From: a virus
DNA length: 46,756 nucleotides
IMG/VR virus record: IMGVR_UViG_3300008107_000091
Coordinates: 1 to 46,756 of that record
Reading direction: 5' to 3' (one strand)
Of this stretch, positions 6,706 to 29,333 are shown in pieces. The notes beneath the pieces were generated by a model. That model had not been told where the DNA came from, did not search any database, and saw only the letters and a program-made list of their open reading frames with translations. The translations under genes and the position numbers were made by a program. Position 1 is the stretch's first letter. Every line of letters starts with the position of its first letter.

Positions 6706-6929
6706 GCGACAGGAGGTGGGGGATTTGGGTTAAGTTTCTCGTCTGTTTGAGTCCAAAGTGCTGCAACGGGGTACAAACACTCCTCGCAATACACTCTGCC
6801 ATCTGTCGAAAGGTAAAAAGTCGGTTGCTCGCAGTTCCCACAAGCCACGATTGCGACTTCTTCCTCGGCTTCAACAGCCTTTTTTGGCTTCTTCCCCTTA
6901 AATCCAACCACATCACCCACGTGATGCAC
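6702..6929 (-). CDS. Small zinc-ribbon protein
   Basis: Up to 75 residues from a GTG at 6929; other in-frame GTGs lie at 6920 and 6914, so the start is uncertain. Two CxxC pairs, in CGNCEQPTFYL and YCEECLYP, are spaced about 20 residues apart and look like a structural zinc ribbon. The N-terminus is basic and the C-terminus Pro-rich. It overlaps the end of the small-terminase candidate and the start of TerL, so the three are co-translated. A role in packaging or nucleic-acid binding is inferred from position. Confidence 0.6.
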   Translation of the reverse strand: MHHVGDVVGFKGKKPKKAVEAEEEVAIVACGNCEQPTFYLSTDGRVYCEECLYPVAALWTQTDEKLNPNPPPPVA

Positions 6930-7494
6930 CGTTTTCTTCAGTGATCACCGTGTATTCAATGCCTTCCAGCACCGAGAGAAGCTCCTTTTCCACTTCCTCA
7001 ATCGGCTTGATGATGTGCGTAACCTCGCTACGCCTCTTAAATGCGTCAATCCCGTCCACTTCGCCCAAGGCTTTGAGGGCATTGATGCGCGTTTTCAGGT
7101 CATCTGCCTGCTCCGCTGCCTCAAACAGCTTATTCACCACGTAGAGCTTCAGGTCAGATAGCTCCTCCACGATCATGTGGTTGTACCGGGCAGCTAACCC
7201 CGCATACAAAGCGATGGTTTCGTTCGGATACTTGGCGAAATCAGGTCGGACCTTGGGGTTCTCGATCATTTCGCGGGCTAATTCTTGTGCGGACGCGCTG
7301 TCAGATTCGGTCGGGATGATGGGCTGGCACGATATGTCCGATATGAACTTGATGGTTCTAGCCCGCATGTCCAGTTCTTCAGCCGGGGACAGGTCCGGTA
7401 GCGCCTCAGCCGCGTTTGCCGGGAGAGCAAGGTTCTCTTCGATGTCAGGGACTAGCGGCTGCATTGTTGCGAAATATATACGAATTTTGGGCAT
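6913..7494 (-). CDS. Small terminase subunit candidate
   Basis: 193 residues from the ATG at 7494, or 183 from an in-frame ATG at 7464; neither has a clear Shine-Dalgarno. The protein is mostly helical. The first half has a conserved-looking MRARTIKFISDIS, and the second half a long amphipathic helix (LSDLKLYVVNKLFEAAEQAD) followed by INALKALGEVDGIDAFKRRS. Its size, helicity and place as first gene of the packaging operon, upstream of TerL, match small terminase subunits, which recognise phage DNA and form a ring. I see no decisive motif, so the assignment is mainly by context. Confidence 0.5.
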   Translation of the reverse strand: MPKIRIYFATMQPLVPDIEENLALPANAAEALPDLSPAEELDMRARTIKFISDISCQPIIPTESDSASAQELAREMIENPKVRPDFAKYPNETIALYAGLAARYNHMIVEELSDLKLYVVNKLFEAAEQADDLKTRINALKALGEVDGIDAFKRRSEVTHIIKPIEEVEKELLSVLEGIEYTVITEENGASRG

Positions 7495-7878
7495 GGTACC
7501 AAATTGGATACCGGGGGGTGTTTTATAGCGAGGGGGTGGGGTCGGCCCAGCCAGATTTTGAAAAATGCGTGGTGATTTGTGCGGATCAAAGTGAGATGGG
7601 CGACGCAGCGGAGTCCCAACTGTGCGCGGCGGGGTGGGGTACGGTGGGGGTCAGGTTGGCCGGGTTCCGGGATTGGCGAGGGGGGCGGGGTAGACGCGGC
7701 GAGACCGCGAGAGGCGAGGGGCGCGTATCTGTTTCAAGCTGTACCCGGTTGCACCATGCGCGGCGAGACCCAACCCGGCGAGCGCGAACGTACCGCGCCA
7801 ACCTAGTCCAGACGTAGCCTAGACCCCGCAGAACCGCGCCCGATTATGTGGCGAGAAAACCACGCGAATAAACCGCGT

Positions 7879-8011
7879 GGAACAACGTAAGGCTTTGAAA
7901 TATCAGGAAATAAATGGCCGTGTTCCAGCTTTGTTCCAGATGTAGATTCTAGCGGAACAAGCTAAAGCCTTGAAATATCAGGGAAAAACCGGGTTTTGTT
8001 CCATGTTCCAG
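7879..8011. repeat. Two imperfect direct repeats of about 60 bases
   Basis: Unit 1 (7879-7939) and unit 2 (7954-8011) share GGAACAA at the left, then TAAGGCTTTGAAATATCAGG or TAAAGCCTTGAAATATCAGG, then two TGTTCCA copies at the right. Because GGAACAA and TTGTTCC are complementary, each unit could form a long stem-loop. A more diverged third unit lies at 8235-8297. Confidence 0.7.
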
Positions 8012-8080
8012 TAAAAACGCGGGGGGGTCTGGCAAAACCCGGAGAGAATCAGGCAAGAGAGGCAAGGGAGCGCGGCGCGT

Positions 8081-8191
8081 TAAAAAGCTCCAAATTAATT
8101 TGAAAACCGTTCGTTTTTTAAAATTCCCTTTTTTCTCTCTTTTTTCTCTTATCTTATTATCTATAAATTCTAATAAAAACAACAAGTTACG
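8081..8191. other. A+T-rich tract, possible DNA-unwinding element
   Basis: A markedly A+T-rich run with long T and TCTCTT pyrimidine tracts, bracketed on both sides by the GGAACA repeats. Low duplex stability next to iteron-like sites is the classic arrangement of an origin. No gene is visible in it. Confidence 0.45.
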
Positions 8192-8386
8192 CCGCCCCCC
8201 TCGCCGTTTCGCCGTTCCAGAGTATAAGAATCACGGAACAAAAGCTGGAACAAACTTTCGGTAAGCCCTTGATTTTATTAGACTTTTTTTGTTCCAGACT
8301 TTTCGCCCCTCTGGAACAACTGGAACAAGCCCCCGCCCGGCAAGATACTAGGCAAAAAAAGTCACTAAATAGTCGCGCCGGGGGGC

Positions 8387-8415
8387 TTCCAATAAGTAAA
8401 GAAAAGTTATTTAAT
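8387..8415 (+). promoter_or_regulatory. Weak sigma70-type promoter with 5' hairpin
   Basis: TTCCAA, 17 bases, then TTTAAT. The -10 matches consensus in five of six positions and the -35 poorly. It is followed by an inverted repeat CCGGGT (8418-8423) / ACCCGG (8436-8441) and the leader ACTAACCCGGAGAAAACAC before the ATG at 8455. The same order of promoter, 5' hairpin and leader occurs at 11190 and 12683, which supports this otherwise weak call. Confidence 0.4.
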
Positions 8416-8454
8416 GTCCGGGTCGAGCAAAAACTAACCCGGAGAAAACACAGA

Positions 8455-8628
8455 ATGAAACTAGTACACATTGCCAACCTCACGGGCGGCGCGTTTTTTA
8501 GCTTTGTTGGCTTCATGGGCGTCGCTCATGGGGTCGAGTCTTCCGCCATATTCGGCGGGGGTTTTTTGGTCGCCGTTGGATGCTTCTACATCTGCGGCGC
8601 GGTTCATTGCCTAACCCGGAGCATCTAA
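8455..8628 (+). CDS. Small two-helix membrane protein
   Basis: 57 residues from the ATG at 8455, eleven bases after GGAG; longer in-frame starts lie inside the repeat region and are rejected. Two hydrophobic segments (GGAFFSFVGFMGVAHG and IFGGGFLVAVGCFYICGAV) make a small integral membrane protein with a short loop. It is the first gene of the rightward early cluster. Early phage membrane peptides often act on host processes, but no family is recognised here. Confidence 0.6.
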   Translation: MKLVHIANLTGGAFFSFVGFMGVAHGVESSAIFGGGFLVAVGCFYICGAVHCLTRSI

Positions 8629-8631
8629 ACC

Positions 8632-8853
8632 ATGCAAAGCCTAAACCTGAATAAATCAGAGCGACGCGAAATAGCCTTGCTCACAGCATCCCTCGCACCC
8701 TCTGCGAATATCGCCCGCCGCCTTGCCGCGCTCCACCGTGCCGCATCCCGTCGCAGTCAAGAGCAGATCGAGCAACTGATAGGCGAGTGGCGCTTGTGGG
8801 ATTTTCTCGAAGTCTTGCCGGGTAACGTCATCGTGCCGAGAGTGGAGGGCTAA
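8632..8853 (+). CDS. Small helical early protein, unknown
   Basis: 73 residues starting MQSLNLNKSERREIALL. The Arg/Ala-rich middle (RRLAALHRAASRRSQEQ) is amphipathic helix, giving a basic protein that might bind nucleic acid. It begins three bases after the preceding stop at a TAAACCATGCAA junction that recurs at three starts in this cluster. No family is recognised. Confidence 0.55.
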   Translation: MQSLNLNKSERREIALLTASLAPSANIARRLAALHRAASRRSQEQIEQLIGEWRLWDFLEVLPGNVIVPRVEG

Positions 8854-11416: not shown

Positions 11417-11610
11417 AAAAGTTTGTGGTGTCACTCGCCCGGATCGAACACCGGGTCTACCAGATTGAGGTCGAGGCCAACGATAAAGACGAGGCCGAAG
11501 AATTAGCCCTCGAAACATGGTACGAGGATGACGAAGCCTTTATGGACTGCGGGTGCGTACACGCCGAAGAATTTATTAATGATGTTGAAGAGCAGCGGGA
11601 GGCAGCATGA
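11413..11610 (+). CDS. DpnD/PcfM-like small protein, copy 1
   Basis: 65 residues starting MKKFVVSLARIEHRVYQIEV. The strand-strand-helix layout, with the two-strand start and an acidic helix (EANDKDEAEELALETWYEDD), resembles the DpnD/PcfM family of small phage and plasmid proteins, whose role is unknown. It has a paralog immediately downstream. ATGA overlaps join it to both neighbours. Confidence 0.5.
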   Translation: MKKFVVSLARIEHRVYQIEVEANDKDEAEELALETWYEDDEAFMDCGCVHAEEFINDVEEQREAA

Positions 11611-11777
11611 AAACTTATAGCGTGACGATCCGAGCGACCGTCGTAAAGACTTTGAGAGTTGAAGCTGAAGACGAAGAAACCGCCACCACAATGGCGCACG
11701 AAGACTTTACCGTTCAGCTAACTGATGACCTTGAAGATTACGAGGAAGAAACTTTGCGCGTGGAGGAGGCTGCATGA
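11607..11777 (+). CDS. DpnD/PcfM-like small protein, copy 2
   Basis: 56 residues starting MKTYSVTIRATVVKTLRVEA. It has the same layout as the preceding gene: two strands, then a helix with EDEETATTMAHEDF, and the same alternating hydrophobic pattern. It probably arose by tandem duplication. Starts and stops overlap both neighbours by four bases, so translation is coupled. Confidence 0.5.
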   Translation: MKTYSVTIRATVVKTLRVEAEDEETATTMAHEDFTVQLTDDLEDYEEETLRVEEAA

Positions 11778-13332: not shown

Positions 13333-13699
13333 GAAGCCGTCGAGAATTTTAGATTCGGTGCAGGAGATGAAAGCTGCGCTCGATGCACTCGATGCGTTGG
13401 GGAAGCCGAAGAAGTCAAAGGCAATACAAGAGGGCAACGACTTGGCGAATAAAATTTTCCAAGAGACTTACGACAAATACCACCCCGACCTCGTTAACAA
13501 CCCGCCGCATTACACAGCGGGGGGGATAGACTTTTTAGATTTTGCTGAAGCGAAGGGGCTGACCGAGAATGCGTACCTGTTCAACGTCGTGAAATACGTT
13601 GTTCGAGCGGGCAAGAAGGTCGGTGTCGATCCGATTCAGGACTTGGAGAAAGCAGAGTTTTACTTAAAGCGAGAGATCGCACGGAGGAAGCAAGCATGA
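13325..13699 (+). CDS. DUF3310 family protein
   Basis: 124 residues from the ATG at 13325 behind GGAG. The C-terminal 65 residues carry the family signature: VNNPPHYTAGGIDFLDFAEA, then LFNVVKYVVRAGKK and QDLEKAEFYLKREI. The N-terminal 55 residues are a charged helix. The family is widespread in phages and of unknown biochemical role, often near nucleotide-metabolism or replication genes. It overlaps the nuclease gene's end and the next gene's start. Confidence 0.78.
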   Translation: MNKKPSRILDSVQEMKAALDALDALGKPKKSKAIQEGNDLANKIFQETYDKYHPDLVNNPPHYTAGGIDFLDFAEAKGLTENAYLFNVVKYVVRAGKKVGVDPIQDLEKAEFYLKREIARRKQA

Positions 13700-14265
13700 A
13701 GACGATTGAGGTAGAGATCCGTGGCAACACGCCACTTTTGATTCACCGCTTTGCTGAACAGGCAGAGCAAGGCAAAGCCACACGCCGAGTCATGGTGGAT
13801 AGTTCTAATCCGCGTGATGAAGCAACCAAGAACGCATACGTTGCGTCCGATGGGACGTATTACTTCAACGCCTTTTCGATCCCGGCGACGATGGCGAATG
13901 CGGGCGTGAACCACAAGATGCGTGGGAGCCGCAAGACTTTGAAGTTCATCGTGCCTTCGGCTGTGCGAGTGGATACCGACACCATCACCATACTGGGTGA
14001 GGATGGGAAACCTGCGCCGAACTTCGAGGTGGATGGTCGTCCGGTCACGATCCCGGCAACGAAGGGTCGAGTGATGCGATACCGCCCTCGCTTTGATAAG
14101 TGGGGTGCGAAGTTCCGCTTGATCCTGAACGATCAGATGTTGTCATCCGAGGACGCGCATCGCTTGTTAAATGAAGCGGGTGAGAGCATGGGTATCGGTG
14201 ATTTTAGGCCAGAGAAACGTGGCCCATTCGGAACATTCCGCGTGACAAGTTTTCGAGAGATTTAA
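13696..14265 (+). CDS. Conserved phage protein, possible Cas7/RAMP-like fold
   Basis: 189 residues. It opens with KTIEVEIRGNTPLLIHRF, a strand followed by a TPLL(I/M)H turn. The middle is IPATMANAGVNHKMRG, the kind of 'substrate loop' helix seen in RAMP proteins. The end is a Gly-rich segment, GIGDFRPEKRGPFGTFRV, which resembles the G-loop and last strand of Cas7/Csm3-type RNA-binding proteins. I infer a possible RAMP fold from these features; no structure or search supports it here. The gene overlaps DUF3310 by four bases and ends six bases before the GGYNN array, with the same orientation. Confidence 0.55.
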   Translation: MKTIEVEIRGNTPLLIHRFAEQAEQGKATRRVMVDSSNPRDEATKNAYVASDGTYYFNAFSIPATMANAGVNHKMRGSRKTLKFIVPSAVRVDTDTITILGEDGKPAPNFEVDGRPVTIPATKGRVMRYRPRFDKWGAKFRLILNDQMLSSEDAHRLLNEAGESMGIGDFRPEKRGPFGTFRVTSFREI

Positions 14266-14383
14266 TTTGAGGCAAGGTCTGGCGCGGTCTGGCGAGGTTG
14301 GGCAGGGTCTGGCACGGTGCGGTGAGGTAAGGTGAGGTGGGGTGAGGCCGTGTGAGGTGGGGCTATGTCTGGTGTGGTTTGGC

Positions 14384-14405
14384 TTTTAGGGGGCAAAGAA
14401 TTTTT
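14384..14405 (+). repeat. Array separator, copy 1
   Basis: A 22-base element with core TAGGGGGCAAAGAATTT flanked by T-runs. Identical at 14511 and 14659. It is preceded by TTGGC. Confidence 0.95.
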
Positions 14406-14510
14406 AAGGCGGGGCAAGGTGAGGTTGGGTCGGGTCGGGTATGGCTCGGCGGGGTCTGGTGAGGTGAGGTTAGGCGATGCCCGGTGTGGCGAGGCGCGGT
14501 AGGGTTTGGT

Positions 14511-14532
14511 TTTTAGGGGGCAAAGAATTTTT
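14511..14532 (+). repeat. Array separator, copy 2
   Basis: Identical over 22 bases to copies 1 and 3, preceded by TTGGT and followed by one more T. It begins 127 bases after copy 1. Confidence 0.95.
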
Positions 14533-14658
14533 TGAGGCGTGGTGCGGTCAGGCTCGGCGTGGCTCGGTTGGGTGTGGTGAAGTTAGGTAGGGTGGGGTAC
14601 GGCGTGGCGTGGTGGGGTCGGGCATGGTCGGGTAAGGCGGGGCATGGTGAGGTTTGGT

Positions 14659-14680
14659 TTTTAGGGGGCAAAGAATTTTT
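14659..14680 (+). repeat. Array separator, copy 3
   Basis: Identical over 22 bases, begins 148 bases after copy 2. The fourth block ends instead in ATGGT followed by a T/A-rich stretch and the ribosome site of the next gene. Confidence 0.95.
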
Positions 14681-14808
14681 TAGGTGGGGTCTGGCTATGC
14701 GAGGCGTGGTCGGGTTAGGTTAGGTCTGGCAAGGCAGGGTACGGTGTGGCGTGGCGTGGTCAGGCCGGGTTTGGTTGGGTATGGTTTTATTTTTACGAGG
14801 TAACAAGT

Positions 14809-15450
14809 ATGAATTCAGTACAGATTGGACGACAACGATTCAGTAACATCTTCTGGGGCATCGTGGATGAGCGGGTGGATGACTACCCGTATGAGGTCAT
14901 TGAGAAGATTGTTGAGGATCAGCAGAAGCTGCGTGCTGATGCAGACTACAACACCGGGTCAGTCCCGTATGACGATGCGGTAGAACTCTATAAGTTGGCG
15001 AAGTTCTTTCAGCCGAAGATCATTGCCGAGGTGGGTACGTTCATCGGTGTATCGACGACCGTGATGTATGAAGCTTGCAAAGGAGAGGTAGATATCTACA
15101 CCTGCGATGTGTCGAACGACATCAAGCTCAACCTACCGTTTCATGTCCACCAATACCCCAAGACATCATCGACAGATATGTTCAAGGACTTGGCCGATAA
15201 GAAGGTCAACGTGGACTTGCTGTATCTGGACGGTCGGTTGCAGCAAGAGGACTTCCAGTACTTCCCGAAGATTATTCATGACCAGACTATCTTTGTGTTC
15301 GACGACTTTGAAGGCATCGAGAAGGGCGTGGTCAACGCGATGATGTTGGAGGGTGCGAACCGACTGCTGATCTATCCGCGTGAGAGCAGGAAGACGGCGG
15401 TATCACTTCCGTTCACTTTGTTGCATTTTGTGCCGCAGGAGGCCACATGA
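14809..15450 (+). CDS. Class I SAM-dependent methyltransferase-like protein
   Basis: 213 residues from the ATG at 14809, behind CGAGG; upstream in-frame starts lie within the array and are rejected. Motif I is clear: IIAEVGTFIGVSTTVMYEA near residues 70-90. It is followed by IYTCDVSND (acidic end of strand 2) and VDLLYLDGRLQQEDF (motif IV region). This matches the Methyltransf_24-type Rossmann fold. The substrate is unknown. Because glycosyltransferases follow, sugar or small-molecule methylation is a fair guess. Its ATGA overlap links it to the next gene. Confidence 0.72.
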   Translation: MNSVQIGRQRFSNIFWGIVDERVDDYPYEVIEKIVEDQQKLRADADYNTGSVPYDDAVELYKLAKFFQPKIIAEVGTFIGVSTTVMYEACKGEVDIYTCDVSNDIKLNLPFHVHQYPKTSSTDMFKDLADKKVNVDLLYLDGRLQQEDFQYFPKIIHDQTIFVFDDFEGIEKGVVNAMMLEGANRLLIYPRESRKTAVSLPFTLLHFVPQEAT

Positions 15451-15563
15451 TCAGGTGGATACTGGGTTTATTCAAACGTGCTGACGAGTTTCGCAAGAAA
15501 GAATGGGCACATGTGCCGCCCCCTGCATGGGGAGCAAAGCGTGGTGGGAGGGATTACTGGTGA
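15447..15563 (+). CDS. 38-residue basic protein
   Basis: An ATG overlapping the methyltransferase stop opens 38 codons starting MIRWILGLFKRADEF and ending in an aromatic, basic tail (GGRDYW). The stop overlaps the GTG of the next gene. Tight coupling on both sides supports it. The N-terminal hydrophobic-basic segment may associate with membrane. No family is recognised. Confidence 0.5.
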   Translation: MIRWILGLFKRADEFRKKEWAHVPPPAWGAKRGGRDYW

Positions 15564-16165
15564 GTGACTATCGCGTAAAAATTAGTGTATCAAATGCGCG
15601 TATCAGACGAGCGATGGAAGCAGCGGGATATACATCCATACAGGCCATGTGCTTAGAACATAAACTGCGGCTCGACATAGTTTATAAGCTGGTCAACATG
15701 AAGATGTCACCGCTAGGTAATGACGGAAGGTGGCACTCCACGACGCTAAAACTAGCAGATGCTTTAAATGTTTTACCTGACGACCTGTTCAGCGAACGAC
15801 AAAAGACTGTTACGTTGAAGACCAACGAAGGGCATCGAGACGTAACAGAGTCAGAACTAGCTGCGATTGCCGCTGAGCAAAATTGGAACGAGCGGCTTGA
15901 AGATATGCGGGACAATGACGCGATCAACCAGATCGCTTCAGAAGAGACTGGGAAAGTGTTGAATGCTGCGATGGAGCATTTACTTACCCCGAAAGAGACA
16001 GAAATTATAAAGTGGCGGTACGGTTTTGAAGGTACACGCAAATCACTGGATGAGATAGGCGCAAAATATAATGTTTCCCGTGAGCGAATAAGACAAATAG
16101 AAAACAAAGCACTTAGGAAATTACGAAGGCCGTATGTGCAAAAGTTTTTTGAAGAAAATACATGA
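15560..16165 (+). CDS. HTH protein with a sigma70 region 4 domain
   Basis: 201 residues from a GTG at 15560 spaced eight bases after GGAGGG. Residues of about 8-85 look like an XRE-type helix-turn-helix (RRAMEAAGYTSIQAMCLEHK and the following LADALNVLPDDLF). The C-terminal 60 residues are a canonical region 4.2 of a primary sigma factor: LTPKETEIIKWRYGFEG, then SLDEIGAKYNVSRERIRQIE and KALRKLRRP. Region 2, needed to open the -10 element, is missing. So it is unlikely to be a full sigma factor. It more likely binds -35-like sites or the RNA polymerase flap and redirects host transcription. Confidence 0.78.
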   Translation: MSDYRVKISVSNARIRRAMEAAGYTSIQAMCLEHKLRLDIVYKLVNMKMSPLGNDGRWHSTTLKLADALNVLPDDLFSERQKTVTLKTNEGHRDVTESELAAIAAEQNWNERLEDMRDNDAINQIASEETGKVLNAAMEHLLTPKETEIIKWRYGFEGTRKSLDEIGAKYNVSRERIRQIENKALRKLRRPYVQKFFEENT

Positions 16166-20464: not shown

Positions 20465-20606
20465 GCGTAAGTTCGCTACTCCAGAATCGTTCAGAGCACA
20501 TCGTTATAAGTTCGGCAGTTGCCGGTCGGTCGAAGCATTGGGCATCGCCGGTTTTGTGGAAACAGCAAAGGGTTGGCATCTAATCAGGATGAAGGTAGCT
20601 AAATGA
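20421..20606 (+). CDS. Small zinc-finger protein
   Basis: 61 residues starting MTVVVKKQRRCTECKRKFAT. One finger is visible, CTECKRKFATPESFRAHRYK with a later Cys (FGSCRS), a C2HC variant of the classical finger. The N-terminus is basic. It overlaps the previous gene by 44 bases and the polymerase start by four, so it may be co-translated with the polymerase and act on DNA. Confidence 0.6.
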   Translation: MTVVVKKQRRCTECKRKFATPESFRAHRYKFGSCRSVEALGIAGFVETAKGWHLIRMKVAK

Positions 20607-22465
20607 GTTTTGTCACGTTAGATTTTGAAACCTACTATGCCCCGGACTACGGGCTGAAGAAGCTCACGACCGAGGAGTACATCAACAACCCACGCTTTGA
20701 AGTGATCGGCGTGGCGATGAAGATTGATGACGATGCTCCCGTGTGGTTCAGCGGTACGAAGGAAGAGACCAAGGCTTGGCTCAACCAAGTTGATTGGACT
20801 AACTCCGCACTGCTTTGCCACAACATGCAGTTTGATGGAGCGATCTTGTCGTGGTACTTCGGGATCACGCCTGCTAAATATTTCGATACGCTGTGTATGG
20901 CTCGGGCTATTCATGGTGTCGATGCAGGTGGATCGTTGGCTGCGCTGGCAGAGCGGTATGGTCTTGGTAAGAAAGGTACGGAAGTTGTCGATGCCCTCGG
21001 TAAACGCCGCGCTGACTTTAGCAAGGAAGACTTGGCGCGTTATGCAGGATATTGCATAAACGATGTAAACCTAACCTACAAACTTTTCATTCGGCTTCTC
21101 GAAGAGGGGTTCCCGTCACCCGAGCTTGACCTAATCGACATGACTTTGCGGATGTACACGCAGCCGGTGTTGACGGTTGATGATGCGTTACTGGTAACGC
21201 GGCTTGAAGAGATCAAGCAAGAGAAGTCTACGCTGTTGTCTGGGCTGATGAGCAAGCTGGGCTGCGAGACAGAGGAAGATGTCCGCAAGAAGTTGGCCAG
21301 CAATCCGCAGTTCGCTGCGCTCCTGACCGAGTTTGGGATCACGCCCCCGACTAAGATCAGCCCGACTACGAACAAGGAAACATTTGCCCTTGCCAAGAAT
21401 GACGAGGGTTTCATCGAGCTAACGGAGCATGACGATCCGTTTATTCAGCAGTTATGTGCCGTTCGTCTCGGCACCAAGTCAACCATAGAGGAGTCACGCA
21501 TTGAACGCTTTATTCATATTGGTGCTAGGAATCGCGGCAGGCTACCTATCCCGCTCAAGTATTACGGCGCTCACACGGGTCGTTGGGCAGGCTCGGAAGC
21601 CGTCAACTTTCAAAACCTTCCTTCAAGAGACAAGAGAAAGAAGGCACTCAAGAATTCAGTGGTGGCTCCGCCAAAGCATGTCATTATCAACTGCGACTCC
21701 TCGCAGATCGAGGCTCGCGTCCTTGCGTGGTTGGCTGGCCAAGAAGATGTAGTCAAGCAGTTCCGTGATGGCGAGGATGTGTATTCGATCTTTGCCACGA
21801 AGATCTACAAGAAGCAGATCAGCAAGGCCAACCCGGTCGAGCGGTTCGTCGGTAAGACCTGCGTCCTTGGACTGGGCTACGGCACCGGAGCGAAGAAGCT
21901 TCAGCATACGTTGAAGACTCAACCTCCGGGGGCTGACCTGCCTGAAGAGGAATGCAAGCGCATCGTCGATCTGTACCGCAGTGCCAACCACAAGATTCCG
22001 GCGTTGTGGGAAGAGTGCGACAGGGCTTTGGTGCATCTGTCTGGTTGGCCAACCGGAGCCAAAGAGTATTCCATCGGTAAGCACAAGTGCTTGTGGATCA
22101 CGCCGCAAGGGATTCGCCTGCCGAATGGATTACATATCCGCTACTCGAAGCTGCGTAAGAGCAACGACCGGTTCATCTATGACTCACGCAAAGGTATCCA
22201 GTCTATCTGGGGCGGAGCGATGGTCGAGAACGTGGTGCAGGCTTTGGCTCGCATCATCGTGGGTGAGCAGATGCTAGAGATCCAGAAGCAGGGTTATCGC
22301 CCTGTGTTGACGGTGCATGACGCGGCTGTGATCGTGGCACCAAAAAGCGATATGGAACATGCGCTTACGACGATTACTCAAGTGATGTCAACGCCACCTG
22401 CGTGGGCTGAGGGCTTGCCCGTCGCGTGTGAAGCAAAGTATGGTGAGTCTTATGGCGAATGTTAA
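20603..22465 (+). CDS. Family A DNA polymerase with 3'-5' exonuclease
   Basis: 620 residues. The exonuclease domain opens with FVTLDFETYY (DxE) and continues with LLCHNMQFDGAIL and YCINDVNLTYKL. Polymerase motif A is INCDSSQIEARVLAWLAGQ near residue 365, motif B is FVGKTCVLGLGYG near 415, and motif C is VLTVHDAAVIV near 571. The usual HDE of motif C is HDA here; the catalytic Asp is kept. The family copies phage DNA. It overlaps the upstream zinc-finger gene by four bases and the downstream nuclease gene by 14. Confidence 0.9.
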   Translation: MSFVTLDFETYYAPDYGLKKLTTEEYINNPRFEVIGVAMKIDDDAPVWFSGTKEETKAWLNQVDWTNSALLCHNMQFDGAILSWYFGITPAKYFDTLCMARAIHGVDAGGSLAALAERYGLGKKGTEVVDALGKRRADFSKEDLARYAGYCINDVNLTYKLFIRLLEEGFPSPELDLIDMTLRMYTQPVLTVDDALLVTRLEEIKQEKSTLLSGLMSKLGCETEEDVRKKLASNPQFAALLTEFGITPPTKISPTTNKETFALAKNDEGFIELTEHDDPFIQQLCAVRLGTKSTIEESRIERFIHIGARNRGRLPIPLKYYGAHTGRWAGSEAVNFQNLPSRDKRKKALKNSVVAPPKHVIINCDSSQIEARVLAWLAGQEDVVKQFRDGEDVYSIFATKIYKKQISKANPVERFVGKTCVLGLGYGTGAKKLQHTLKTQPPGADLPEEECKRIVDLYRSANHKIPALWEECDRALVHLSGWPTGAKEYSIGKHKCLWITPQGIRLPNGLHIRYSKLRKSNDRFIYDSRKGIQSIWGGAMVENVVQALARIIVGEQMLEIQKQGYRPVLTVHDAAVIVAPKSDMEHALTTITQVMSTPPAWAEGLPVACEAKYGESYGEC

Positions 22466-26134: not shown

Positions 26135-26446
26135 GTGGCTCGCCCATACAGTGAAAGATTCCTACTAAACCTGCAAAGAGCGGACGGAGGTAGTCTCGGC
26201 GTCCAACTTGGCAGGCTGTGTGTAGAGGCGAACCTGCCTGCGGCTTACGTTGCTAAGGCTTTGGAAACCTCACGCATCAGCGTGTACAACTGGTTCCGAG
26301 GCAGGGGCATTCGTGAGAACAAGCGTAAGACCGTTGAGGTTTTCATGGATCTTGTTAAGCAAGACATGAAGGCTGGCTATCTTCCTGCTCGTACGATCAT
26401 TGACGCCAAGATTTACATCGAGTCGATGATAGGAGTGAAGATTTGA
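26135..26446 (+). CDS. Helix-turn-helix DNA-binding protein
   Basis: 103 residues from a GTG at 26135 behind GAGGTAG. The HTH is clear at residues of about 25-60: LGRLCVEANLPAAYVAKALE, then TSRISVYNWFRGRGI as recognition helix. This is the lambda-repressor-like class. The C-terminus is helical. It ends 15 bases before a strong terminator, so it closes this operon. It may act as a regulator of early or replication genes. Confidence 0.7.
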   Translation: MARPYSERFLLNLQRADGGSLGVQLGRLCVEANLPAAYVAKALETSRISVYNWFRGRGIRENKRKTVEVFMDLVKQDMKAGYLPARTIIDAKIYIESMIGVKI

Positions 26447-26461
26447 TTTGACCTTTCGGTT

Positions 26462-26488
26462 GGCGGGGGGCCTTCGCCCCCGCCTTTT
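26462..26488 (+). terminator. Strong Rho-independent terminator
   Basis: An eight-base stem GGCGGGGG/CCCCCGCC with a seven-base loop, followed by TTTT. It separates the HTH gene from the primase-helicase gene, which lies 20 bases beyond. Confidence 0.88.
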
Positions 26489-26507
26489 CTGTCTCTGCGA
26501 GTTGAAA

Positions 26508-29333
26508 ATGTTAAGACAATTTTACGAGAAAGCATTGCCATCGCAGGGCGTGTACTGTGTAACCGGTATCAAGGACAAGAAAGTTCAGAACCGGTTTGCT
26601 GAAACGCTCGATGATTTGATCAACATTATTGAGGAGTTAAAGGCTCAGGAATACAACCTATTCGTCGCGTTAAGTTCGTTCAATAGCTACAGCCGCAAGG
26701 CTGATAACGCGGCATTCTCGCGGTCGTTCTTCATTGATCTTGACGTAGATCCGGAGAACCCGAAGAAGTACAACAGCAAGGAAGAAGCCCTTGCTGCGCT
26801 AGATGAGTTCTTGCAGATATCAAAGTTTGCTCCGCCTATCCGCGTCGATTCGGGTGGCGGTGTCCATGCCTATTGGTTGCTGGATCAAGACGTACCTATC
26901 GTTGAGTGGAAGAAGTACGCCGAGAAGTTCAAGAAGTTCTGCGCTGAACATATCAAGATTGATATGGCGGTGACGGCAGATGCTGCCCGTGTCCTGCGCT
27001 GCCCAGATACTTTGAACTACAAGACCGATCCGCCACGCGAAACGAAGTTAATAGACACAGATCTGGGGCAGTACAGTTTCCACCAGATCCAAGAGTTCCT
27101 TGGGGTAATACCGCCTACGGTCGAAGAGATTCTGGCATCCATCGAGCCAGACCTGCCGCCGAAGCCAGACAATTTCGAGTACATCTTTTCCGATATCGTG
27201 GTGCAAAGCCTGACCGGGCAGGGCTGCAACCAGATCAAGAACATCGTTCTGAACCAAGCACTGGTTGAAGAGCCGTTGTGGAGAGCGGGGTTATCCGTAG
27301 CGGTGCGTTGTATTGATGGCAAAGAAGCCATTCATCAGATGTCCAACAAGCATCCGGGCTATTCACCGGATATGACGGAGAGCAAAGCGAATGAAACGCT
27401 CAAAGCGGAGTGGGCTTACGGATGCACCAAGTTCGAGGAACTTTACCCTGCCGGTTGTGACGGTTGCCCCTTTCGAGGAAAGTTCGGTAAGTCCGGACCC
27501 ATCCAACTCGGAAAGCGACTTAAAGAAGCCCCGTCAACCGAGACAATTAGTGAAGAGGACACAGTTCGGATTGAACAGAATCCCGAAGAAGTTCCGCTAT
27601 TTCCTACTGCGATCAGTCCCTATGTACGAGGGGCCAATGGAGGAGTCTGGTACAAACCCAAACCCGAAGTAGATGAAGACGGGAACATCGAGCAGGTCAA
27701 GCCGTATCAGTTGATTGCGAATGATCTGTTTGCCATCAAGCGTATGCACAGTCCGACCGAGGGCGAGTGCTTGTTGATGCGGTACATCTTGCCGAAAGAC
27801 CCGACCAAAGAGTTCTTGTTTCCGATGCGGTATGCGTATGCCTACGACAAGTTGAAAGAAACCCTAGCCTTCCACGGTGTCGGGTTCTCGCCAGAGATGG
27901 TGAAGCTTGTATCGGAATACTTGAGAAAGTGGAACGAGTTCCTACAAAACGTTAAATCAGCAGAGATCATTCGTATGCAAATGGGATGGACAGAAAACTA
28001 CGATGCCTTCATCACGGGGGCTTTAGAGATCATGGCTTCAGGCGAGGAGCGACCAGCAGCGACTTCGCCTCTTGTCAAGAACGTGTCGAAACTATTCCGA
28101 CCGACAGGCAGCTACGAGAAGTGGCAGGAGTCTGCCAATGCCTTCAACATTCCAAGCCTTGAGCTACACGCGCTGGGTTTGCTTGCTGGGTTTGGTTCGC
28201 CCTTGATGCGTATGACCTCGACGGCAGGCGGCGTGATTAGCTACATGAGTCCCGAGACCGGTATTGGTAAAACTGGATCTATGTATGCCGGACTCAGTGT
28301 GTTTTGTGATCCTTACTACATCAGCTTGGCCGATGGCTCGGCTACAGATAACGCTCTAACGGGGCGGTATCTTGCTATCAAAAACATTCTGTTCGGCCTT
28401 GACGAAGTGTCGAACATTGATAGTGAGATACTGTCCCGCCTCATCCACCGCATCTCGCAGGGTCGTGCCAAGGCTCGTATGCAGTCCTCGGTCAATGCCG
28501 AGCGTGAGATCGAGATGGGTGCGGCACTCATCGCTGTCATGACTACTAACCAGTCTTTGTACGACAAGCTCAAGCAGGTCAAGAAGAGTCCGGACGGTGA
28601 GATCGCACGTACCATCGAGTTCCGACTTGAGATGCCGCAGGCATTCATCGACGATCCCGGCCTGTCCAAGAAGATCGTAGACCCGCTGCGTTTCAACTAC
28701 GGTCATGCAGGGTCGATCTTGATCCGCCAGATCTACAAGCGGGGCGATACCGAGGTCCGGGCGATCATCGAGAAGTGGGCAGAAAAGTTCCGTGATGACT
28801 ACGGCAGGAACCCGGCATACCGGTTCTACGAGAACATGATCTCGTGCTGCTTTGCTGGCGGTGAACTGGCCGTGGAAGCGGGCATCGTTGACCTAGACCT
28901 GAACCGGATCTACCGGGTGGTCATGCGGACGATGAACGAGATGAAGAAGCAGGTCTTCAACCTGAATGACATGGACTACAAGTCCCTCATCGCGGACTTT
29001 TTTAACAAGTACCATACCGGCTTCTTGATCTTCAACGAAAGCCAAGTCATCAACGAGCCTCGCAGTGCCATCGTGGGACGCATCGAGGTGCATAACAGTG
29101 TGCAGTACATCAGCAAAACAGAGTTCCAGAAGTATCTGGCCAGCCCCGGCTTGCAGATTAGTAGCACTGCGGCTGAACGCGCTTGGCTGAAGAACGGCAT
29201 TCTGAAGGAGATTAAGAAGCAGCGCCTGACGACGGGCTGGAAGCAAGGCACTCACCAAGCTGCCGTATCCTGCTACGTATTCAACACGGAAGGACTGCCG
29301 GAGGACTACCTTGACAAGCCCTCGTCTGACTGA
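26508..29333 (+). CDS. Primase-helicase (AEP-like plus DUF927-type ATPase)
   Basis: 941 residues from the ATG at 26508; a longer in-frame start at 26448 runs through the terminator and is rejected. The N-terminal archaeo-eukaryotic-primase-like domain has RSFFIDLDVDPEN (DxD) near residue 76 and VDSGGGVHAYWLL (sxH motif) near 115, then LRCPDTLNYK. A Cys cluster (YPAGCDGCPFRGKFG) lies near 325. The C-terminal part is a DUF927-type ATPase with Walker A SPETGIGKTGSMY near 585 and LFGLDEVSN near 630. It would unwind DNA and lay primers for the family A polymerase. Confidence 0.8.
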   Translation: MLRQFYEKALPSQGVYCVTGIKDKKVQNRFAETLDDLINIIEELKAQEYNLFVALSSFNSYSRKADNAAFSRSFFIDLDVDPENPKKYNSKEEALAALDEFLQISKFAPPIRVDSGGGVHAYWLLDQDVPIVEWKKYAEKFKKFCAEHIKIDMAVTADAARVLRCPDTLNYKTDPPRETKLIDTDLGQYSFHQIQEFLGVIPPTVEEILASIEPDLPPKPDNFEYIFSDIVVQSLTGQGCNQIKNIVLNQALVEEPLWRAGLSVAVRCIDGKEAIHQMSNKHPGYSPDMTESKANETLKAEWAYGCTKFEELYPAGCDGCPFRGKFGKSGPIQLGKRLKEAPSTETISEEDTVRIEQNPEEVPLFPTAISPYVRGANGGVWYKPKPEVDEDGNIEQVKPYQLIANDLFAIKRMHSPTEGECLLMRYILPKDPTKEFLFPMRYAYAYDKLKETLAFHGVGFSPEMVKLVSEYLRKWNEFLQNVKSAEIIRMQMGWTENYDAFITGALEIMASGEERPAATSPLVKNVSKLFRPTGSYEKWQESANAFNIPSLELHALGLLAGFGSPLMRMTSTAGGVISYMSPETGIGKTGSMYAGLSVFCDPYYISLADGSATDNALTGRYLAIKNILFGLDEVSNIDSEILSRLIHRISQGRAKARMQSSVNAEREIEMGAALIAVMTTNQSLYDKLKQVKKSPDGEIARTIEFRLEMPQAFIDDPGLSKKIVDPLRFNYGHAGSILIRQIYKRGDTEVRAIIEKWAEKFRDDYGRNPAYRFYENMISCCFAGGELAVEAGIVDLDLNRIYRVVMRTMNEMKKQVFNLNDMDYKSLIADFFNKYHTGFLIFNESQVINEPRSAIVGRIEVHNSVQYISKTEFQKYLASPGLQISSTAAERAWLKNGILKEIKKQRLTTGWKQGTHQAAVSCYVFNTEGLPEDYLDKPSSD

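What the first reader, a model, noticed from the sequence alone, without database searches (positions are those of the whole stretch)
7879..8328. Iteron-like TTGTTCCAG cluster around an A+T-rich tract: candidate origin
Twelve copies in both orientations lie within 450 bases, flanking an A+T-rich pyrimidine tract, in the only large non-coding divergent region. This is the standard arrangement of a replication origin, and no origin is otherwise visible. A multi-site operator is the alternative.
Basis: partly seen in the sequence, partly recalled or inferred. Interest (0 to 1): 0.65.

Follow-up and report, generated by a model that had tools for sequence, protein, structure and literature searches.

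The report
Iteron replication origin of a podovirus
The repeats are almost certainly where this water-borne phage starts copying its DNA: a landing pad for its own primase-helicase, built like the origins of satellite elements that parasitise phages, with a landing-site sequence that relatives keep changing while the layout stays fixed.

Summary
Twelve GTTCC-core sites lie at 7877-8328 (11 TGTTCC/GGAACA against 0.24 expected, maximum 3 in 5,000 simulations). They flank the most A+T-rich 100 bases of the record (8081-8190).

The origin reading is strongly supported but unproven; no replication data exist. All 27 records (window included) that hold both this terminase and this primase-helicase, with the upstream DNA present, carry an iteron cluster at the same place. 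Layout is conserved (tandem sites 7-12 bases apart, ~43- and ~22-base steps, element TAAGTNNTTGATTTT beside the A+T tract). Iteron sequence is not: TGTTCC, TGTTCT, TGTACG, TGTKCC, TGTGTC, TGTTC[AG].

The likely reader is the 961-aa primase-helicase (26448-29333): PrimPol, DUF927/MCM-like ATPase and a C-terminal winged helix. Its best structural matches are SCCmec Cch and SaPIBov1 Rep, self-loading initiators whose relatives bind iterons with this domain. That domain also tracks iteron sequence best among protein segments, modestly.

'Two iteron sets flanking an A+T-rich region' was described as unique to phage-inducible chromosomal islands; here it is in lytic-type phages. Verdict: new variant of a known kind, origin about 0.86. 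Rivals are a terminase (pac) site or an operator.

The parts
7877..7885 (-). iteron TTGTTCCAC (half of convergent pair 1)
7888..7912 (+). element copy 1, TAAGGCTTTGAAATATCAGGAAATA
   Evidence: 83% identical to copy 2 over 35 nt
7920..7928 (+). iteron GTGTTCCAG (pair 1 partner, 42 nt from 7879)
7931..7939 (+). iteron TTGTTCCAG, tandem
7952..7960 (-). iteron TTGTTCCGC (half of convergent pair 2)
7963..7987 (+). element copy 2, TAAAGCCTTGAAATATCAGGGAAAA
7996..8004 (+). iteron TTGTTCCAT (pair 2 partner, 43 nt from 7954)
8003..8011 (+). iteron ATGTTCCAG, tandem
8081..8190 (.). A+T-rich, pyrimidine-rich tract; probable unwinding (melting) region; lowest-GC 100 bases of the record
8166..8189 (-). element copy 4 (degenerate), TAACTTGTTGTTTTTATTAG, abutting the A+T tract on the - strand as in relatives
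8212..8220 (+). degenerate iteron CCGTTCCAG
8233..8241 (-). iteron TTGTTCCGT
8245..8253 (-). iteron TTGTTCCAG (half of convergent pair 3)
8262..8282 (+). element copy 3, TAAGCCCTTGATTTTATTAGA, closest to the family consensus TAAGTNNTTGATTTT
8289..8297 (+). iteron TTGTTCCAG (pair 3 partner, 43 nt from 8247)
8311..8319 (-). iteron TTGTTCCAG
8320..8328 (-). iteron TTGTTCCAG, tandem
26448..29333 (+). predicted initiator, 961 aa (likely start at 26508, Met 21): N-terminal AEP/PrimPol, DUF927 MCM-like AAA+ helicase, C-terminal winged helix (about residues 845-947)
6913..7494 (-). probable small terminase subunit (rival reader of the repeats)
   Evidence: position next to TerL; no Pfam or PHROG hit; homologues at the same place in all 25 relatives checked

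Best explanation
The 7877-8328 region is the phage's replication origin, of the iteron type used by phage-inducible chromosomal islands (SaPI/PICI) and, more loosely, satellite P4. Proposed mechanism: the C-terminal winged-helix domain of the 961-aa primase-helicase binds the TGTTCC iterons. Tandem and inverted sites about 2 and 4 helical turns apart place a ring or pair of rings on each side of the A+T-rich tract. The MCM-like DUF927 ATPase then loads there and melts the A+T tract, perhaps helped by the conserved TAAGTNNTTGATTTT element that abuts it. The fused PrimPol primes, and the phage's own family A polymerase extends. Shown here: the site architecture, its conservation, the link with this protein, and the protein's fold relatives. 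Inferred: binding, melting and initiation.
For: (1) The cluster far exceeds chance and flanks the lowest-GC 100 bases of the record. (2) All 27 records, window included, that carry both this TerL and this primase-helicase and hold the upstream DNA have a cluster at the equivalent place. Layout is conserved (41-44 and 22-24 base steps), and the element lies within about 30 bases of the lowest-GC 50 bases wherever it is recognisable. (3) The initiator profile hits PDB 5dgk (Cch) at 8e-14. The AlphaFold model's top PDB matches are Cch (1.9e-19) and SaPIBov1 Rep (5e-15), and PrimPols match the N-terminus. The C-terminal domain alone matches Rep and Cch first, then HSF winged helices. HTH_56 'Cch helix turn helix' is the only family matched by more than two members of this domain: 14 of 44, best 3.9e-5, window 0.001. 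(4) Literature: PICI origins always have two iteron sets flanking an A+T-rich region, and rep-ori drives plasmid replication (PMC6092414); SaPI Rep recognises iterons through its C-terminal domain, and DUF927 Cch is its relative (PMC7581432). (5) Across 23 non-redundant phages the C-terminal domain is the protein segment whose divergence best follows iteron divergence: r=0.32, p=0.0005; given the core, r=0.27, p=0.02. It does better than TerS. (6) A composite pattern (element plus two iterons) pulled at least 120 stretches from viral contigs; 14 of 18 such records over 24 kb encode this primase-helicase and 3 others a DUF5906 primase-helicase. None of 398 Pseudomonadota genomes has it.
Against: No binding, footprint, read-depth or nascent-strand data exist. 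GC skew is confounded with gene orientation; fourfold-site coding-strand skew is 0.13, 0.13 and 0.06 in the left, middle and right gene blocks. The initiator gene is 18 kb away, whereas PICI origins lie just behind rep. The covariation is modest and gives no residue-level code: G090 (TGTTCC) and G087 (TGTTCT) have near-identical recognition helices. Relatives with an unrelated primase (023Pt_psg01, HTVC023P) still have repeat clusters near TerS, so a cluster at this place is not exclusive to this initiator.
Confidence: 0.86

Rival explanations
1. It is a terminase recognition (pac/cosB-like) site: TerS binds the repeats upstream of its own gene and starts packaging there.
For: The cluster lies 0.4 kb upstream of the probable terS in the window, and clusters lie near terS in 023Pt_psg01 and HTVC023P, which have a different primase.
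Against: TerS divergence follows the iterons less well than the initiator's C-terminal domain (r=0.25, p=0.06; TerS given CTD p=0.18; CTD given TerS p=0.03). The same composite site lies 70 bases behind a DUF5906 primase-helicase gene in G096. A long A+T-rich melting tract between two iteron sets is not a pac feature (own knowledge).
Confidence: 0.07
2. It is a multi-site operator that controls the divergent early and late promoters, bound by a phage regulator (for example the 103-aa HTH protein at 26135-26446 or the sigma-like protein at 15503-16165).
For: Divergent genes on both sides; sites in both orientations; HTH proteins are encoded.
Against: No sigma-70-like promoter lies within 7877-8328 (consensus scan only, other promoter types not covered). 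Twelve sites spread over 450 bases around the lowest-GC tract, with fixed 2- and 4-turn steps and a conserved second element in relatives, is unusual for an operator. The composite is shared with phages of quite different gene content whose common feature is a primase-helicase.
Confidence: 0.05
3. It is the origin, but read by another protein or by a host factor, with the primase-helicase recruited indirectly. (A sub-case of 'origin', counted inside the 0.86.)
For: The TAAGTNNTTGATT element is shared with phages whose iterons differ and whose helicases are DUF5906 or DnaB-like. No residue-level code was found in the winged helix.
Against: The initiator's own C-terminal domain resembles the domain by which SaPI Rep binds iterons, and it is the segment that best tracks iteron sequence.
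Confidence: 0.15

Closest known systems
SaPI/PICI replication origins with Rep (SaPIBov1 Rep, PDB 8tch) and SCCmec Cch (PDB 5dgk)
   Same: Two iteron sets flank an A+T-rich region; the initiator is a DUF927/MCM-like AAA+ helicase with a C-terminal winged helix.
   Different: Here the replicon is a tailed phage with its own terminase, portal and DNA polymerase. The primase is fused at the N-terminus, the initiator gene is 18 kb from the origin rather than just upstream of it, and a further conserved element (TAAGTNNTTGATTTT) abuts the A+T tract.
Satellite phage P4 ori/crr with alpha protein
   Same: Repeated short TGTTC-type iterons (TGTTCACC) in both orientations next to A+T-rich DNA, with 10-11, 22 and 43 base steps, read by a fused primase-helicase.
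   Different: P4 has opposite site polarity at the 22 and 43 base steps, a separate crr, a different helicase family and a diverged C-terminus.
Iteron plasmid origins (RepA/RepE/TrfA type)
   Same: Iterons plus an A+T-rich unwinding element.
   Different: No Rep_3/RepA-type protein was found among the ORFs scanned, and iterons here are on both strands. Not pursued further.
HTVC023P/HTVC027P/023Pt_psg01/DSL-LC04 phages
   Same: About 50% identical TerL, similar late genes and family A polymerase.
   Different: The three examined (HTVC023P, 023Pt_psg01, DSL-LC04) use an AEP-TOTE primase with a UvrD-like helicase; none of the four has a match to this initiator. DSL-LC04 has no comparable cluster in the 48 kb read; HTVC023P and 023Pt_psg01 have different repeats near terS.

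Membership tests
SaPI/PICI-type iteron origin | two sets of short iterons flanking an A+T-rich region | tested here: met
   definition from PMC6092414
SaPI/PICI-type iteron origin | cognate initiator of the Rep/Cch (DUF927) or Pri-Rep type with a C-terminal DNA-binding domain | tested here: met
SaPI/PICI-type iteron origin | origin lies immediately 3' of rep | tested here: not met
   the initiator gene is 18 kb away in the window; so it is not filed as a PICI origin, only as working like one
SaPI/PICI-type iteron origin | initiator plus origin drive autonomous replication | not testable with these tools
   needs a plasmid replication assay
Phage-inducible chromosomal island (the element) | small satellite without its own virion genes | tested here: not met
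   terminase, portal, endolysin and virion proteins are present
P4 ori | TGTTCACC type-1 iterons with P4 polarity, and alpha protein | tested here: not met
Rep/Cch helicase family (DUF927) | DUF927 AAA+ core and Cch-like fold | tested here: met
   Pfam DUF927 1.5e-17, above its cutoff; 5dgk at 8e-14; Foldseek 1.9e-19
Rep/Cch helicase family (DUF927) | C-terminal HTH_56 winged helix | tested here: inconclusive
   E=0.001 on the isolated domain, below Pfam's curated score; 14 of 44 relatives match; fold match probability 0.97-0.98 but E-values 0.02-0.2
pac/TerS site | bound by TerS and is the packaging start | not testable with these tools
   covariation with TerS is weaker than with the initiator

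The most novel reading that the evidence does not exclude
A large, undescribed class of aquatic phage origins consists of two modules: an almost invariant element (TAAGTNNTTGATTTT) beside an A+T tract, and quickly changing iterons read by the winged helix of a self-loading primase-helicase. Helicase families (DUF927, DUF5906, possibly DnaB-like) and iteron sequences are swapped behind the same element. Satellite islands (PICI, SCC) would then share their replicon with virulent phages, and iteron switching may act like plasmid incompatibility or as escape from satellites.
Probability: 0.45. Interest if true: 0.78.

Novelty: new variant of a known kind. Interest (0 to 1): 0.64.

Why it matters
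[quoted passage not shown] Finding it, with a Rep/Cch-type initiator, in a large group of lytic-type aquatic phages suggests where satellites' replicons came from, or with whom they exchange them. It gives a marker (TAAGTNNTTGATTTT next to tandem iterons) for finding origins in uncultured phages. The natural set of at least six iteron classes on one layout is ready material for working out how the winged helix reads its site.

Tried and rejected
tRNA and Rfam searches of the window were empty. A blastn search of the region against cultured phages found nothing homologous. Sigma-70 scan: the one promoter-like match in 7400-8800 lies outside the repeats, and counts are no higher than in shuffles. 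A first motif EM drifted to poly-T and was discarded; trinucleotide counts after TGT were used instead. A residue-level recognition code in the winged helix was sought and not found. Skew at fourfold sites could not separate origin from gene direction. Pseudomonas phage Rollin, the best cultured hit to the initiator (25%), shows no such cluster or element in the 41 kb read. A literature search by the letters of the element found only unrelated papers. The E. coli genomes hold no convincing copy of the composite. A local scan of the composite loci for the initiator was uninformative, because the loci are too short.

Full report
Observation. Twelve GTTCC-core sites, six on each strand, lie at 7877-8328. 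Eleven TGTTCC/GGAACA in 600 bases compare with 0.24 expected and a maximum of 3 in 5,000 simulations. The tract they flank, 8081-8190, holds the lowest-GC 100 bases of the record. Three convergent pairs 42-43 bases apart each enclose a copy of a second element (TAAGGCTTTGAAATATCAGG, TAAAGCCTTGAAATATCAGG, TAAGCCCTTGATTTTATTAG). A degenerate fourth copy, TAACTTGTTGTTTTTATTAG, runs on the minus strand into the A+T tract.

What the record is. It is a 46,756-base linear virus record. Leftward genes encode a TerL, portal and GroES-like protein; rightward genes a family A polymerase, SNF2-type helicase, PD-(D/E)XK nuclease and a primase-helicase; a second leftward block holds virion and lysis genes. 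TerL relatives among cultured phages are about 50% identical (DSL-LC04, 023Pt_psg01, HTVC027P, HTVC023P). Complete cultured relatives are 58-62 kb and many of the longest contigs are about 60 kb, so the window is probably about three quarters of a genome.

Conservation of the site. Contigs with 76-95% identical TerL carry the same kind of cluster upstream of TerS. Counting the records that hold both this TerL and this primase-helicase and have the upstream DNA, all 27 (window included) have a cluster; one further record (G019) is cut off too early to tell. The layout repeats: tandem sites 7-12 bases apart, an inverted site 41-44 bases away, further sites 22-24 bases on, and the element TAAGTNNTTGATTTT within about 30 bases of the lowest-GC 50 bases. 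Not every record shows every step. The iteron itself changes: TGTTCC in most, TGTTCT (G046, G051, G076), TGTACG (G018, G075), TGTKCC mixtures (G002, G004), TGTGTC (G089, and L077, whose record has no primase on the fragment), TGTTC[AG] (G094) and mixed TGTTCT/TGTTCC (G045, G047, G072). Three TerL relatives (L045, L050, L104) with 3.4-10 kb upstream lack any cluster; they are fragments and their replication genes are unknown.

The likely reader. The 961-aa protein at 26448-29333 has DUF927 (1.5e-17). A profile of 14 relatives finds SCCmec Cch (PDB 5dgk) at 8e-14. An AlphaFold model (mean pLDDT 84) has as top PDB matches Cch (1.9e-19) and SaPIBov1 Rep (8tch, 5e-15), with PrimPols for the N-terminus. 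Folded alone (pLDDT 86), the last 121 residues form a winged helix; its best matches are again SaPIBov1 Rep and Cch (probability 0.98 and 0.97, though E-values are only 0.02-0.2), then HSF winged helices. Pfam's 'Cch helix turn helix' is the only family matched there by more than two members (14 of 44). [quoted passage not shown] PICI origins always show two iteron sets flanking an A+T-rich region, and a rep-ori segment drives plasmid replication (PMC6092414).

Covariation. In 23 non-redundant phages the distance between iteron sequences correlates best with the distance between C-terminal domains (r=0.32, p=0.0005; given the rest of the protein r=0.27, p=0.02); twelve non-overlapping segments were tried and the others were weaker. 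TerS is weaker (r=0.25, p=0.06) and adds nothing significant once the C-terminal domain is given (p=0.18), while the reverse holds (p=0.03). This is modest evidence: some phages with near-identical recognition helices have different iterons (G087, G090).

Wider occurrence. The composite TAAGTNNTTGATT-N(4-26)-TGTTCC-N(1-4)-TGTTCC was found in at least 120 stretches of viral contigs, where the scan stopped. By my arithmetic fewer than one would be expected by chance even in 1e11 bases of even composition. None of 398 Pseudomonadota genomes has it. Of 18 such viral records over 24 kb, 14 encode this primase-helicase. Three others (G096, G097, G099) encode a DUF5906 primase-helicase instead, and in G096 the site begins 70 bases behind that gene, the SaPI arrangement. 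For the fourth (G103) no candidate was found. Cultured Morganella phage Henu15 has the element with TGTTGCAG iterons, and Xanthomonas FoX6 and Vibrio 1.123.O have it with other repeats. These cultured hits are individually weak by E-value and rest on the repeated copies seen on inspection.

P4. Its type-1 iterons (TGTTCACC) have 10-11, 22 and 43 base steps like the window's, but with opposite site polarity. I read this as the same kind of geometry, not membership.

Alternatives. A pac site is the strongest rival, because clusters stay near terS even in 023Pt_psg01 and HTVC023P, whose primase and helicase are unrelated. The covariation test and the DUF5906 case speak against it. An operator is less likely given the conserved melting-type layout and the shared replication proteins. 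A GC-skew minimum near 7 kb agrees with an origin here but coincides with the change of gene direction.

Verdict. Origin of replication of the SaPI/PICI working type, in a lytic-type podovirus, with probability about 0.86. Shown: architecture, conservation, association and fold relationship. Inferred: binding, melting and loading. That the phage is lytic is itself inferred, from the lack of any integrase or repressor among the annotated genes of what is probably an incomplete genome. It is not a PICI and not a P4-type origin. The invariant element and the switching of iteron class are, as far as the searches of the held literature go, undescribed.

Noticed in passing
L377 (phage P4) 9310-9413: P4 ori type-1 iterons show the same 22 and 43 base steps as the window's sites but with opposite polarity.
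   Followed up: partly
L378 (Xanthomonas FoX6), L379 (Morganella Henu15), L381 (Vibrio 1.123.O): Copies of TAAGTNNTTGATT (FoX6 and Vibrio 1.123.O also have diverged ones) sit in intergenic DNA with quite different repeats (for example TGTTGCAG in Henu15), beside primase-helicase or DnaB-like genes in FoX6 and Vibrio 1.123.O.
   Followed up: partly
L383 (023Pt_psg01) 13574-13784; L364 (HTVC023P) 11467-11764: Clusters of seven TGTGCC and eight TAGGAA repeats near terS in relatives whose primase is of the AEP-TOTE type with a UvrD-like helicase.
   Followed up: partly
L382 (DSL-LC04) 20474-21118: No iteron cluster, but TAACCTATTGATTTTAAAGG and an inverted repeat lie in the equivalent divergent gap; may be a further origin variant.
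   Followed up: no
L027, L037, L055, L064, L072, L086, L103 (first 300 bases): Many short contigs of this group begin within or just beside the iteron cluster, as if assembly (or the genome end) breaks there.
   Followed up: no
window 7520-7720: G-rich stretch (runs of GGGG, GCGAGGGGGTGGGGT repeats) between the probable terS and the repeats.
   Followed up: no
window 14001-15000: GC skew of 0.43, far above the rest of the record, around the start of the methyltransferase-like gene.
   Followed up: no
window 26135-26446: 103-aa protein with a weak HTH_31 match, encoded directly before the primase-helicase; could be a regulator or loader partner.
   Followed up: no
L217: Only one genome contig (an Alphaproteobacteria MAG, 32 kb contig) encodes this initiator (42%), a possible but unproven hint of the host.
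   Followed up: no
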